This document shows, piece by piece, positions 15,055 to 58,291 of a stretch of 64,000 nucleotides of DNA. Both the position numbers and the translations under genes were made by a program. Below the pieces are notes generated by a model. The model did not search any database and was not told the origin of the DNA. It saw only the letters and a list, made by a program, of their open reading frames with translations. How positions within the stretch are numbered: the stretch's first letter is position 1; each line of letters starts with the position of its first letter. Source of the stretch: an uncultured Pelagibacteraceae bacterium (GTDB lineage Bacteria; Pseudomonadota; Alphaproteobacteria; Pelagibacterales; Pelagibacteraceae); contig CACNYD010000002.1 in assembly GCA_902624635.1 (NCBI GenBank), forward strand, positions 1 through 64,000. Direction: 5' to 3'.

Positions 15055-15388
15055 TAATTTTGTCAATTTTTGCAGCTAATATAAAATCATTTTCAGATAA
15101 ACCCTCGATAGCATGAGTTGTAATATTAATCTTGGCATATCCCCATCCAAACATAATGTCTGGATGATGTCCCTCATCCTCTGAAATTCTTCCCACCTCA
15201 TTTACAAATTTTTGACTTTCTATAAAATTTTTAAACTCAAATTTTTTTTCCAAAAGATAAACTTTTTTATCATTTTGAACAATTTCCCAGCCATCTACTT
15301 TTTTTTGATATTTATGAATTTCAGAAATATCAAAAGCCTTAACACCACCTTCACAAGGAACACATTTTTTGTCTAATAAATCACTCAT
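15044..15388 (-). CDS. phhB: Pterin-4a-carbinolamine dehydratase
   Basis: This 114-residue protein matches the PCD/DCoH family, which dehydrates 4a-hydroxy-tetrahydropterins. It has KFEFKNFIESQKFVNEVGRISEDEGHHPDI, written here as two parts: KNFIESQKFVNEVG and the active-site EGHHPD. The later INITTHAIEGLSENDF carries the third active-site His. ATG 15388 is preferred over the longer frame to 15445 because the extra residues overlap the methyltransferase gene and match nothing. Its 3' end overlaps purH by 11 bp in convergent orientation. No phenylalanine hydroxylase gene is in the window. Confidence 0.9.
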   Translation of the reverse strand: MSDLLDKKCVPCEGGVKAFDISEIHKYQKKVDGWEIVQNDKKVYLLEKKFEFKNFIESQKFVNEVGRISEDEGHHPDIMFGWGYAKINITTHAIEGLSENDFILAAKIDKIINV

Positions 15389-15396
15389 AAATAAAA

Positions 15397-39490: not shown

Positions 39491-39772
39491 GTATAAATTA
39501 TGTATAAATCTGTATTATTTTTATCATATTGAACAAATTTCATATTTTAAAATTTATGTTGTAAAACAATGATTTTATTAACAATATTAAACATGTTGAG
39601 ATCTTTAGTAGCCATTTAATGTATTTAGTTAATAAGCTTCAATTTTGAGTATATATTTATTAAAATTTTAATCCTAAATGTTAATAAGATGTTAATATAA
39701 TGTTCAATAAATTTAATCACCAATATTCACAAAGTATACTAACATTACAATTAATTATATTTAATTATTAAT
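39491..39772. other. Candidate chromosomal replication origin (oriC)
   Basis: This is the longest gene-free stretch in the window, very AT-rich, between divergent ppsR (RP001/DUF299) and hemE. That is the position of oriC in Caulobacter and Rickettsia. DnaA-box-like nonamers are TTATTAACA at 39575-39583 (plus), the same word on the minus strand at 39679-39687, and near matches at 39690-39698 and 39723-39731 (ATATTCACA). A TTAA-N7-TTAA word, the CtrA half-site pair, is at 39681-39695. Genes run away on both sides. None of this is proof; the nonamers match only the relaxed TTATNNACA form. Confidence 0.6.
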
Positions 39773-43801: not shown

Positions 43802-44644
43802 TCATAGATAGCCAAGTTCAATTAATTCATCTTTAAGCTCAGCTTCTAGCTCTCTTCTAATGTCTTCTGGAAGTGAATCTTCCCAATTATTATCGGGACC
43901 TTTATTAAAAAATTTAACTTTTTCATTGGTTCCTTTTACAAAAACGTTTTCAGTAAATTTACCATCTTCCTCAAATTTTTTTAAAGCTTCAAAAGAAGTT
44001 GACTTGATAATGCTTTCTTTTTTTATATCTGAGACCTCAAAATCTATAAAATTTTTTAGAAATGCTATAATTTTATCAATTTCATTATGTATATTTTTTA
44101 CTAAATCCTCATATTTGATAATCAATAAATTCTCGTTATCTTTTGTCCAGAATCTATAATGTTCTTTCCACGAACCAAGATATGTAATTACGTTTCCACC
44201 TTTTAACTCAATTTCTTTACCAGGAGAAAGAATTTTCGATGTGAGAAGAAACTTCTTAGAATCTTCAATAGATTTACCGAAGTGGTTTGATATGGAGTCA
44301 ATAAGATTTCTAGGATCTCTAATAATGTAAATCGTAGCTCGTGTGCATTCTTTATTAGTAAAAGGATAATTGTCAACTTTACAGTTTAAATGATGTGTTT
44401 TGAAAAATTTTATTTTAGTGTCTAAATTAATTCTTTCTTGAGATGTAATCCAATGCTTTTTGATTTCGTGAATATTATTATAATCTTGTGTGAAGTATTC
44501 TAAAAATTGTCTTTGTGGATATTGGTCAATTTTTTTTATGCTGGAAAAATCAAATATTCCATCTTCAGTATAGATTAGGGAAGAAATTATAGATCTGACC
44601 CATGTATTTCCACTCTTCGGATATGATGCTACCCAAATAATCAT
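43802..44644 (-). CDS. Sulfotransferase family protein (paralogue 3)
   Basis: The 280-residue protein has SYPKSGNTW (7-15), His84 in FFKTHH, RDPRNLIDS (109-117), KYEDLV and FNKGPDNNWEDSL near the C-terminus, all positions of PAPS and acceptor binding. It lies on the opposite strand between rho and mnmE, which are usually adjacent in Alphaproteobacteria, with 1 bp to rho and 38 bp to mnmE. It therefore looks inserted. Its C-terminus ends in a Glu-rich helix and LIELGYL. Confidence 0.86.
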   Translation of the reverse strand: MIIWVASYPKSGNTWVRSIISSLIYTEDGIFDFSSIKKIDQYPQRQFLEYFTQDYNNIHEIKKHWITSQERINLDTKIKFFKTHHLNCKVDNYPFTNKECTRATIYIIRDPRNLIDSISNHFGKSIEDSKKFLLTSKILSPGKEIELKGGNVITYLGSWKEHYRFWTKDNENLLIIKYEDLVKNIHNEIDKIIAFLKNFIDFEVSDIKKESIIKSTSFEALKKFEEDGKFTENVFVKGTNEKVKFFNKGPDNNWEDSLPEDIRRELEAELKDELIELGYL

Positions 44645-48002: not shown

Positions 48003-48649
48003 TGGATAACTTAATTTTAAATTCTTATTCCAAAATTTCCAATTTGAATGTTTCACGTGAAACTTGTAATGAGCTTGAGAGCTTAATTACGATGATACAG
48101 GAAAAAAATCAGGAAATTAACATTATAAGTAAAAAAATGTATGAAAAAGGGGCAATAAGAGAGCGTCATATAATAGATTCTGCACAAATTGTTGATTTTG
48201 TTGATTTAAATTGCAATACAACCTCAGATTTAGGTACAGGAGGTGGAATGCCAGGATTAATAGTGGCTATAGTGATGAAAAAAATTAAAAATGACATGAA
48301 AGTAAACCTCTATGAAAAAAGCTACCACAAATGTGTTTTCCTGAGAGAAGTTTCAAAAAAATTAAATTTAAATACAGAAATAATTCAGAAAGATATTTTT
48401 TCACTTAGAAATATTGAAACAGGAACAATTATGTCAAGGGCGTTTAAGCCAATGCCTGTGATTTTAAACTTAGTTAATGAAAATTTTAAAAAATATAAAA
48501 ATATTATTTTTTTTATGGGAAGTAGTGGAAGAAAAATTCTTAATGAAACACTTCAAGAGTGGGATTTAGATTATGAAGAAAAAAAAAGTTTAACAAGTGA
48601 CGACTCATTTATATTAAATATTAGAAAAATAAAAAAAAAAGTTTCATGA
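48002..48649 (+). CDS. rsmG: 16S rRNA m7G527 methyltransferase RsmG (GidB)
   Basis: RsmG methylates G527 of 16S rRNA. The 215-residue protein has NVSRETCNELESLI at the N-terminus, AIRERHIIDSAQI, SAM motif TSDLGTGGGMPGLIVAI (about 77-93) and YEKSYHKCVFLREV, then SRAFKPM. The codons for NVSRET contain the parS site. It is coupled to mnmG by TAATG and overlaps parA by 4 bp. Confidence 0.95.
   Translation: MDNLILNSYSKISNLNVSRETCNELESLITMIQEKNQEINIISKKMYEKGAIRERHIIDSAQIVDFVDLNCNTTSDLGTGGGMPGLIVAIVMKKIKNDMKVNLYEKSYHKCVFLREVSKKLNLNTEIIQKDIFSLRNIETGTIMSRAFKPMPVILNLVNENFKKYKNIIFFMGSSGRKILNETLQEWDLDYEEKKSLTSDDSFILNIRKIKKKVS
48049..48064. other. parS: parS centromere-like ParB-binding site inside rsmG
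   Basis: TGTTTCACGTGAAACT differs from the bacterial consensus parS (TGTTTCACGTGAAACA) at the last base only. The inner 14 bp (48050-48063) are a perfect palindrome. It lies within the early rsmG codons, about 1.4 kb before parB and about 8.4 kb from the candidate origin. Confidence 0.9.
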
Positions 48650-49440
48650 AAATTATTTCAATTATAAATCAAAAGGGTGGGGTTGGAAAAACAACAACTG
48701 TAATAAATTTAGCGTCCGCGTTATCCCAACTTGGAAAAAAAATTTTAGTAATCGATCTAGATCCTCAAGGGAATGCTACTACAGGACTGGGATTATCCAA
48801 CACCTCTCAATCCGATCAGACAATTTATGGGATTCTCAATGGCACAATGTCAATTTCAAACGTAATTAAAAAAACAGAGTTCCAAAATCTTGATTTAATA
48901 TCATCCAATGTAGATCTGTCTGGACTGGAGGTTGAAACCGCTGGAGATAGTGACAGAGCCTTTATTCTTAAAGCTAAATTAACCGCGTTTTTAAATGATT
49001 CTAGAGGATTATATGATTATATTCTCATTGATTGCCCTCCTTCTTTGAGTCTTCTAACTGTAATGGCTTTGGTATCATCTAACTCACTGCTTGTGCCATT
49101 ACAAACAGAATTTTTTGCTTTAGAAGGACTAACACAGCTTATGAAGACTATAGAGAGGATAAAAATTAACTTGAATCCTGAATTAGATATTCAAGGCATA
49201 CTTTTAACTATGTATGATCGAAGAAATAAACTTTCTTCACAGGTTGAACAGGAAGCGAGAGATTATTTCAAAGATAAAGTTTACCAAACGGTAATACCTC
49301 GAAATGTAAGATTATCAGAAGCACCATCTCATGGTATTCCGGTATTGATTTATGATAAGAATTGTCCAGGAAGTAAGTCATATTATAGTTTTACAGATGA
49401 GTTCTTGGCACAAGAAAATAAAGTTGGGAGTGCAGCGTAA
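48646..49440 (+). CDS. parA: Chromosome-partitioning ATPase ParA
   Basis: ParA moves ParB-parS complexes on the nucleoid. The 264-residue Walker-type ATPase has the deviant Walker A KGGVGKTT (10-17), VIDLDPQGNATTGLG (about 36-50), IDCPPSLSLLTVMAL (Walker B, about 125-139) and VIPRNVRLSEAPSHGIPV near 216-233. It is coupled to rsmG by a 4-bp overlap and to parB by TAATG. Size and motifs fit a chromosomal Soj type rather than a plasmid type. Confidence 0.97.
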   Translation: MKIISIINQKGGVGKTTTVINLASALSQLGKKILVIDLDPQGNATTGLGLSNTSQSDQTIYGILNGTMSISNVIKKTEFQNLDLISSNVDLSGLEVETAGDSDRAFILKAKLTAFLNDSRGLYDYILIDCPPSLSLLTVMALVSSNSLLVPLQTEFFALEGLTQLMKTIERIKINLNPELDIQGILLTMYDRRNKLSSQVEQEARDYFKDKVYQTVIPRNVRLSEAPSHGIPVLIYDKNCPGSKSYYSFTDEFLAQENKVGSAA

Positions 49441-50282
49441 TGAACAAAATAAAAAAAGGGTTGGGCAGAGGATTATCTTCCTTAATCGGTGAAACTAAAA
49501 TTGAGAATAAAACAAATAATTTAAGCTTAGCCGACATAGTCCCTAACAAATATCAACCAAGAAAAAATTTTGATGAAGAGAACTTAAATGATTTAGTTAA
49601 TTCAATAAAAGAACGTGGTGTTATTCAGCCAATTATAGTTAGAAAATCTAATACGAATAATTCTAAATATGAGATTATAGCTGGAGAAAGAAGGTGGTTG
49701 GCTGCACAAAAAGCGGGACTTAATGAAATTCCTGTAGTCGTTACAGATGCCGACGATCTAAAATCATTAGAATTTGCAATAGTTGAAAACGTGCAAAGGC
49801 ATGATTTAAATCCTTTAGAAGAAGCACAAGGTTATAAAAGATTGATAGATGAATTTGCTTATGATCAAGATAAAGTATCAAAATTTATAGGTAAAAGCAG
49901 AAGTTATATTTCTAACTCATTAAGATTACTTAATTTACCCAAAGAAGTTCTTGATTTTGTAGAACAAAAAAAAATCACAGCTGGTCATGCAAAGATATTA
50001 GTAGGACTAGATAATGCTACTTTTCTAGCAAATAAATTTATTGAAAAAAAATTATCTGTTAGACAAGCTGAAAATTTGGTTAAAATATTTAGAAAAACTA
50101 AAAGAAATACCTCCAGTAGAGTAGACTCAAATATTAGAGATTTAGAAAACTCTATATCTGAAAAAATCGGACTCAGTGTCTCTATTAAAAATAATAAAAA
50201 CAATAAAGGTAAAATATCATTTTATTACAAAGAGCTTGATCAATTAAACAAGATTATTGATATTATTAAATCTGGATATTAG
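49440..50282 (+). CDS. parB: Chromosome-partitioning protein ParB
   Basis: ParB is a CTPase that loads at parS and spreads. The 280-residue protein has an N-terminal ParA-contact segment KKGLGRGLSSLIGE (4-17), the CTP motifs QPRKNFDEENLNDLV, GVIQPIIVR (C-motif), GERRWLAAQKAG and ENVQRHDLNPLEEA, then the helix-turn-helix that reads parS (SKFIGKSRSYISNSLRLL), and a C-terminal dimerisation region. It converges with holA, overlapping by 17 bp. Confidence 0.96.
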   Translation: MNKIKKGLGRGLSSLIGETKIENKTNNLSLADIVPNKYQPRKNFDEENLNDLVNSIKERGVIQPIIVRKSNTNNSKYEIIAGERRWLAAQKAGLNEIPVVVTDADDLKSLEFAIVENVQRHDLNPLEEAQGYKRLIDEFAYDQDKVSKFIGKSRSYISNSLRLLNLPKEVLDFVEQKKITAGHAKILVGLDNATFLANKFIEKKLSVRQAENLVKIFRKTKRNTSSRVDSNIRDLENSISEKIGLSVSIKNNKNNKGKISFYYKELDQLNKIIDIIKSGY

Positions 50283-57730: not shown

Positions 57731-58291
57731 ATGAGCTTTCGAATTTTAATAATATACGAATATCAAATTTTATACCAAGTATTAAATGAAATTAGTGAAA
57801 GTTTAAATTTTGAGATTATTCAATCTAACAATAAGGACTTAAAAGAATTTAAGTATGATCCAAAAAATAACTATTTAATTGTCTCAAAAAAAAAAATTGA
57901 AGGAATTAAGAACAGTTTAATCTTAGATAATTTACCCATTAGAATTGAAAAACTCATTGAAATAATTAACATAAAGTTTTTAAAAGATAAATTTTTAGAT
58001 CAATCACATATAAAAATAGGTAAATATAATTTAGATTTAAACTCTAGAAAAATTTCAGTCGGGGACAAAAGTTTAGATTTAACAGAAAGAGAAACAAATT
58101 TAATAATTTTTATTAAAGATAAAAAAAATGTAACAGTTAAAGAATTGCAAAAAATGGTTTGGGACTATTCACCAGATTTAGATACTCATACTGTTGAAAC
58201 ACACATTTATAGATTGAGGAAAAAAATGAGAGAAACTTTTGGTAATGAAAGTTTTATTATAAATACAAGCAATGGTTATTCGATAGATTAG
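57731..58291 (+). CDS. OmpR/PhoB-type winged-helix regulator with degenerate receiver
   Basis: The 186-residue protein ends in a complete OmpR-type DNA-binding domain (about 95-186): KISVGDKSLDLTERETNLI, VTVKELQKMVWDYSPDLDTHTVETHIYRLRKKM (split) and a C-terminal SNGYSID hairpin. The N-terminal ~85 residues keep a receiver-like order (RILIIYEYQ, YLIVSKKK, LPIRIEKLIEII). However, they lack the acidic pair and phospho-acceptor Asp, and the domain is shorter than the usual ~120. It is therefore probably phosphorylation-independent. No kinase gene is adjacent. Confidence 0.85.
   Translation: MSFRILIIYEYQILYQVLNEISESLNFEIIQSNNKDLKEFKYDPKNNYLIVSKKKIEGIKNSLILDNLPIRIEKLIEIINIKFLKDKFLDQSHIKIGKYNLDLNSRKISVGDKSLDLTERETNLIIFIKDKKNVTVKELQKMVWDYSPDLDTHTVETHIYRLRKKMRETFGNESFIINTSNGYSID

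What the first reader, a model, noticed from the sequence alone, without database searches (positions are those of the whole stretch)
39491..39772. Candidate replication origin between ppsR (RP001/DUF299) and hemE
Directly seen: a 282-bp gene-free AT-rich gap, the longest in the window, divergently flanked by ppsR and hemE. It has two exact TTATTAACA nonamers (39575-39583 plus, 39679-39687 minus), two near matches, and a TTAA-N7-TTAA word at 39681-39695. Known: in Caulobacter and Rickettsia the origin lies between hemE and RP001. Inference: the SAR11 origin has kept this place but lost strong DnaA boxes, perhaps relying on relaxed boxes.
Basis: partly seen in the sequence, partly recalled or inferred. 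Interest (0 to 1): 0.7.

Follow-up and report, generated by a model that had tools for sequence, protein, structure and literature searches.

The report
SAR11 chromosome replication origin
This short gene-free stretch is very probably where a SAR11 ocean bacterium starts copying its chromosome; comparison with over a hundred relatives shows docking sites for the starter protein and the likely strand-opening site, in the same place as in other Alphaproteobacteria.

Summary
In detail: the 282-bp ppsR|hemE gap and the named words are at the stated coordinates. The window is SAR11 (Pelagibacteraceae). In the window alone the boxes barely exceed chance, and TTAA-N7-TTAA is chance level. Comparison settles it. 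The gap is exactly 282 bp in 58 of 110 relatives. That box is followed by a 4-nt spacer and an NTA-triplet run resembling DnaA-trios. In a complete relative the gap is the genome-wide box maximum, and the only good parS site lies 8 kb away, as in Caulobacter. Orientation-corrected GC skew places the origin at hemE within about 30-40 kb and disfavours dnaA (62 kb away), whose upstream gap has no exact box. The elements persist where ppsR or hemE is gone from the gap. Likely mechanism: DnaA assembles on weak boxes and opens the duplex at the triplet run beside hemE, without CtrA. This is a new member of a known kind, the alphaproteobacterial hemE-linked oriC. No read-depth or binding data were available.

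The parts
39491..39772 (.). proposed oriC: the whole ppsR|hemE gap
   Evidence: gap length 261-284 bp in 110 relatives, 58 of them 282 bp; conserved boxes; box maximum in complete relative G003
39499..39507 (-). B1, weak DnaA box beside ppsR (TATGTATAA here; TGTTAATAA in many relatives)
   Evidence: alignment columns; one mismatch to TTATNCACA
39575..39583 (+). B2, relaxed DnaA box TTATTAACA
   Evidence: 82 of 103 distinct gaps identical; alternatives TTATCAACA, TTATTCACA, once TTATCCACA
39679..39687 (-). B3, first box of the phased array (TGTTAATAA on + strand)
   Evidence: alignment; array matrix ranks this place first genome-wide in G003
39690..39698 (-). B4, second box of the array, 11 bp on
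39701..39709 (-). B5, third and most degenerate box of the array, 11 bp on
39723..39731 (+). B6, near-canonical DnaA box (ATATTCACA here; TTATTCACA in most relatives)
   Evidence: columns 80-100% conserved in 40 representatives
39732..39735 (+). 4-nt spacer, variable sequence, fixed length
39736..39753 (+). triplet run ATA-CTA-ACA-TTA-CAA-TTA, candidate DnaA-trios (bound strand is the minus strand) and unwinding site
   Evidence: A at every third base 88-100% conserved; strict three-trio rule met in 31 of 40 representatives but not in the window
48049..48064 (.). parS, TGTTTCACGTGAAACT, inside rsmG, 8.3 kb from hemE
   Evidence: only site with at most 2 mismatches to TGTTTCACGTGAAACA in 1.2 Mb of G003; same region in G000, G063, G043, G035
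48646..50282 (+). parA (48646-49440) and parB (49440-50282), named by recognition of the translated sequence
   Evidence: ORFs

Best explanation
The gap is the chromosomal replication origin (oriC) of this SAR11 bacterium. DnaA binds relaxed boxes: B2, the phased minus-strand array B3-B5, and near-canonical B6. From B6 the DnaA filament extends across a fixed 4-nt spacer onto a triplet run (39736-39753) beside the hemE start codon and opens the duplex there, so that helicase can be loaded. Forks leave both ways and meet about half a chromosome away; parS 8 kb off moves the new origins apart. Control would rest on DnaA itself, as CtrA is absent. Shown by computation: location evidence, conserved boxes, spacing, spacer register, triplet conservation, parS. 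Inferred: DnaA binding, strand opening, helicase loading. I put the origin itself at about 0.92 and opening at the triplet run at about 0.75.
For: Conserved gap length and boxes. Box maximum in G003, and in the G063 and G035 segments. Matrices trained on distant relatives rank the gap first genome-wide in G003 (array 38.9 against 15.6 bits; box+trio 27.5 against 17.7) and the array matrix also in another genus. In other genera the box-to-triplet spacer is 4, 7 or 10 nt, not the neighbouring values. Third-base A conservation. Skew and gene orientation. parS 7-9 kb away in five genomes of the genus. No exact box upstream of dnaA. Elements kept where hemE is missing from the gap or ppsR is lost. 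DnaA domain IV aligns to E. coli DnaA without gaps.
Against: The window's own box count is only weakly above chance and its triplet run is interrupted after two trios. G043 and G040 segments have other places with as many boxes. Skew cannot resolve better than some 30-40 kb and GC3 change points differ between single genomes. In G040 parS lies 18.7 kb away on the other side. Overall identity of the gap is not above that of other intergenic gaps. No experimental data.
Confidence: 0.82

Rival explanations
1. The origin lies near dnaA, 60-63 kb downstream in this genus, and the gap is merely a conserved intergenic region.
For: Many bacteria have oriC beside dnaA (general knowledge). The raw skew minimum of G003 lies between hemE and dnaA.
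Against: No exact TTATNNACA box in the gap upstream of dnaA in G000 or G003; corrected skew 3.4 ln units worse; genes between hemE and dnaA are already mostly co-directional with replication from hemE; parS is 8 kb from hemE.
Confidence: 0.05
2. The gap is a divergent promoter region of ppsR and hemE; the conserved words are regulator or promoter sites, some perhaps bound by DnaA as a transcription factor.
For: The gap sits between two divergent genes, and promoters must lie in it. The triplet run ends about 20 nt before the hemE start and contains -10-like words.
Against: The block is kept where the gap borders rho instead of hemE and where ppsR is lost. Triplet register, phased array, skew and parS are not explained by promoters. 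Promoters and an origin can overlap, so this is partly compatible with the best explanation.
Confidence: 0.06
3. The gap is oriC, but strands open elsewhere in it (for example the AT-rich stretch 39640-39678), and the triplet run is an AT-rich accident.
For: The whole gap is 84% AT. The window's run is interrupted and 9 of 40 representatives fail the strict rule. A matrix of the triplets alone is not specific in G003.
Against: A at every third base is 88-100% conserved while first bases vary. Fixed register after the box in other genera. GC-richer Alphaproteobacteria have CTACTACC-like runs at the like place, and the sister family CTACTACTACTACC.
Confidence: 0.18

Closest known systems
Caulobacter crescentus Cori and Rickettsia oriC (origins between hemE and COG1806/RP001; PMC1914354)
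   Same: Same two flanking genes, AT-rich gap, weak DnaA boxes (Caulobacter G- and W-boxes, PMC4468827), parS about 8 kb away in Caulobacter (PMC6399470).
   Different: Shorter (282 bp against 383-404 bp for the Caulobacter and Rickettsia examples in PMC1914354), no CtrA regulator and no meaningful CtrA sites, different relaxed box (TTATTAACA).
Basal unwinding system (BUS) of bacterial origins: DnaA-box, spacer, DnaA-trios (Bacillus subtilis; PMC8287927, PMC6669920)
   Same: Box, short spacer, then triplets with the trio strand and orientation of 3'-GAT-5'; conserved in relatives.
   Different: Triplet run is A/T-rich and interrupted in the window (ATA CTA ACA TTA CAA TTA); lies beside hemE rather than beside dnaA.
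Phased low-affinity DnaA box arrays (as in E. coli oriC)
   Same: Same-strand weak 9-mers at regular 11-bp steps.
   Different: Only three boxes; the E. coli comparison is from general knowledge and was not checked here.

Membership tests
Alphaproteobacterial hemE|COG1806 oriC | lies between or beside hemE and ppsR (COG1806) | tested here: met
Alphaproteobacterial hemE|COG1806 oriC | cluster of DnaA boxes, more than chance and more than elsewhere in the genome | tested here: met
   met by comparison and in G003, G063, G035; weak in the window itself
Alphaproteobacterial hemE|COG1806 oriC | AT content above genome average | tested here: met
   84.0% against 70.8% for the window
Alphaproteobacterial hemE|COG1806 oriC | GC-skew switch at the site | tested here: met
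   within about 30-40 kb in complete relative G003
Alphaproteobacterial hemE|COG1806 oriC | CtrA binding sites (present in Caulobacter; not in all members) | tested here: not met
   single TTAA-N7-TTAA at chance level, no CtrA-family regulator over cut-off; variable feature, so not excluding
Alphaproteobacterial hemE|COG1806 oriC | IHF binding site | not tested
   no IHF scan was run
Alphaproteobacterial hemE|COG1806 oriC | replication starts here in vivo | not testable with these tools
   needs read depth or marker frequency
Basal unwinding system (BUS) | DnaA box followed within 16 bp by at least three consecutive NAN trios | tested here: inconclusive
   met in 31 of 40 representatives, not in the window (two, then interrupted)
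Basal unwinding system (BUS) | fixed box-to-trio register, conserved across relatives | tested here: met
   spacers 4, 7, 10 in other genera, shuffles 0.13-0.24; periodic conservation
Basal unwinding system (BUS) | DnaA-dependent strand separation needing box and trios | not testable with these tools
   needs purified DnaA

The most novel reading that the evidence does not exclude
Alphaproteobacterial origins share one ancestral unwinding block (box, short spacer, triplet run beside hemE), which SAR11 keeps in a fixed-length, CtrA-free, minimal form with re-tuned relaxed boxes, and which stays in place even where one flanking gene, hemE or ppsR, has been lost.
Probability: 0.5. Interest if true: 0.6.

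Novelty: new member of a known kind. Interest (0 to 1): 0.45.

Why it matters
[quoted passage not shown] subscription papers and origin databases were not searchable). A base-level map makes initiation testable and gives a fixed anchor for growth-rate estimates from metagenomes; a method that places the origin at dnaA, as GRiD does (PMC7852909), would be off by about 62 kb. It also suggests what a minimal alphaproteobacterial origin needs once CtrA control is gone.

Tried and rejected
Raw cumulative GC skew cannot separate hemE from dnaA. TA3 skew was inconsistent between genomes. TTAA-N7-TTAA as a CtrA site: rejected. Higher overall conservation of the gap than of other intergenic gaps: not found. 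The triplet matrix alone is not specific in G003. The strict BUS rule fails in the window itself. The SAR11 matrix finds a match at P <= 0.05 in 13 of 29 other Alphaproteobacteria, some at other places or on the other strand, so class-wide homology is a reading and not a proof. The stretch 15055-15396 that first looked like a longer gap lies inside a TTG-start ORF.

Full report
WHAT WAS CHECKED. The gap 39491-39772 lies between ppsR (-) and hemE (+), is 282 bp and 84% AT, and is the longest stretch without an ORF of 50 aa or more. In the window alone the box signal is modest: P = 0.025 for TTATNCACA with one mismatch allowed, P = 0.08 for exact TTATNNACA; the repeated exact word gives P = 0.0013 but was chosen after the fact. 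TTAA-N7-TTAA occurs 16 times in the window and in 19% of shuffled gaps.

SETTING. The window is contig 2, bases 1-64000, of a 959-kb, 20-contig genome that is 79% complete; its relatives are named Pelagibacteraceae, i.e. SAR11. By recognition of the translations, genes run maf, aroE, coaE and dnaQ beyond ppsR, and hemH, rho, mnmE, mnmG, rsmG, parA, parB beyond hemE. hemE and COG1806 (ppsR) flank the Caulobacter and Rickettsia origins (PMC1914354).

COMPARATIVE ANATOMY. Gaps of 110 loci (the window's own and those of relatives) are 261-284 bp long, 58 of them exactly 282. The alignment of 103 distinct gaps shows B2 TTATTAACA (82 of 103; alternatives TTATCAACA, TTATTCACA and once TTATCCACA), a minus-strand array of three boxes at 11-bp steps (B3-B5), a plus-strand box B6 (TTATTCACA in most relatives, ATATTCACA here) and a box-like B1 beside ppsR. 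Over 40 representatives under 85% identity, B6 columns are 80-100% conserved, the next four bases vary, and then A is 88-100% conserved at every third base from 39738 to 39753, mostly after T. On the other strand this is the DnaA-trio pattern of the basal unwinding system, consensus 3'-GAT-5' (PMC8287927, PMC6669920). The window's own triplets are ATA CTA ACA TTA CAA TTA, so the strict rule of three consecutive trios is met in 31 of 40 representatives but not here.

SPECIFICITY. In the complete relative G003 (1.2 Mb) no other place has as many boxes by either definition; the same holds for the 200-kb segments of G063 and G035, but not for G043, G040 or the window's own 144 kb. Matrices trained only on relatives with at most 78% hemE identity rank the gap first genome-wide in G003 for the array (38.9 against 15.6 bits) and for box+trio (27.5 against 17.7); the array matrix also ranks it first in the segment of G040, another genus. 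In 14 gaps of other genera, a box followed by two NTA triplets occurs at spacers 4, 7 and 10 (5, 4 and 4 genomes) and 12 (2 genomes), and at none of the other spacers from 0 to 12; shuffles average 0.13-0.24. Same-strand box pairs at 11 bp occur in 5 of the 14 against 0.38 expected; 23 bp also gives 5.

WHERE THE ORIGIN LIES. Raw cumulative GC skew of G003 peaks 608 kb from hemE, half the genome, and has its minimum 31 kb from hemE on the dnaA side. dnaA lies 60-63 kb from hemE in this genus, so raw skew does not decide. With gene orientation fitted as a covariate the best origin is 10 kb from hemE, almost equal from about -40 to +25 kb, and the dnaA site is 3.4 ln units worse. Gene orientation changes at hemE, not at dnaA. 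The only site with at most two mismatches to TGTTTCACGTGAAACA in G003 lies 8.0 kb from hemE; the window has it at 8.3 kb (48049-48064) and three more genomes of the genus at 7.1-8.8 kb (G043 with a second one nearby); in G040 it lies 18.7 kb away on the other side. Caulobacter parS is about 8 kb from its origin (PMC6399470). The gap upstream of dnaA holds no exact TTATNNACA box in G000 or G003.

INDEPENDENCE FROM THE FLANKING GENES. In genus g9 hemE is not beside ppsR and the gap borders rho, yet a block TTATAAACATGACCTAATAACA is kept. In the sister family f2 ppsR was found in none of 30 genomes, yet the gap between a maf-like gene and hemE keeps CACAGG plus CTACTACTACTACC-type runs beside the hemE start. 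Other Alphaproteobacteria show similar blocks beside hemE, e.g. CCCCGTTATTCACAGGGATAAACAACTACTACC in L309; the SAR11 matrix finds a match at P <= 0.05 in 13 of 29, not always at that place.

PROTEINS. DnaA domain IV of this genome aligns to E. coli DnaA (1J1V) without gaps, with NRDHTTIIHS where E. coli has GRDHTTVLHA; the three other SAR11 genera read have GRDHTTVIHA. Of four OmpR-type regulators of G003, one is PhoB and none reaches a CtrA cut-off, in line with the reported lack of ctrA in Pelagibacter (PMC2877005).

VERDICT. The gap is very probably the SAR11 oriC (about 0.92); opening at the triplet run beside hemE is likely but not shown (about 0.75). It is a new member of a known kind. 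Read depth, DnaA binding and replication assays were not available, and origin databases such as DoriC could not be consulted, so a prior prediction of this location may exist.

Noticed in passing
L336-L344 (sister family f2 of the same order), upstream of hemE: ppsR was found in none of 30 f2 genomes, but the gap beside hemE keeps box-like words and CTACTAC-type triplet runs.
   Followed up: partly
L272, L273 (genus g9, G009 and G022): hemE is not beside ppsR; the gap borders rho, and the best hemE match elsewhere in the genome has only about 30% identity, so heme synthesis may be altered or lost.
   Followed up: no
39560-39568 and 39634-39646: TGTAAAACA and AAGCTTCAATTTT are strongly conserved in the gap; their role is unknown.
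   Followed up: no
58067-58276: Part of a gene for an OmpR-type DNA-binding protein whose relative in G003 (186 aa) matches response regulators only in its C-terminal half; it may be an orphan regulator.
   Followed up: no
L183 (dnaA of this genome): The DnaA recognition motif is NRDHTTIIHS in this genus but GRDHTTVIHA in the other SAR11 genera read; it may be linked to box preference.
   Followed up: no
43802-44644: A sulfotransferase-like gene (by recognition) on the minus strand sits between rho and mnmE, inside the otherwise conserved origin neighbourhood.
   Followed up: no
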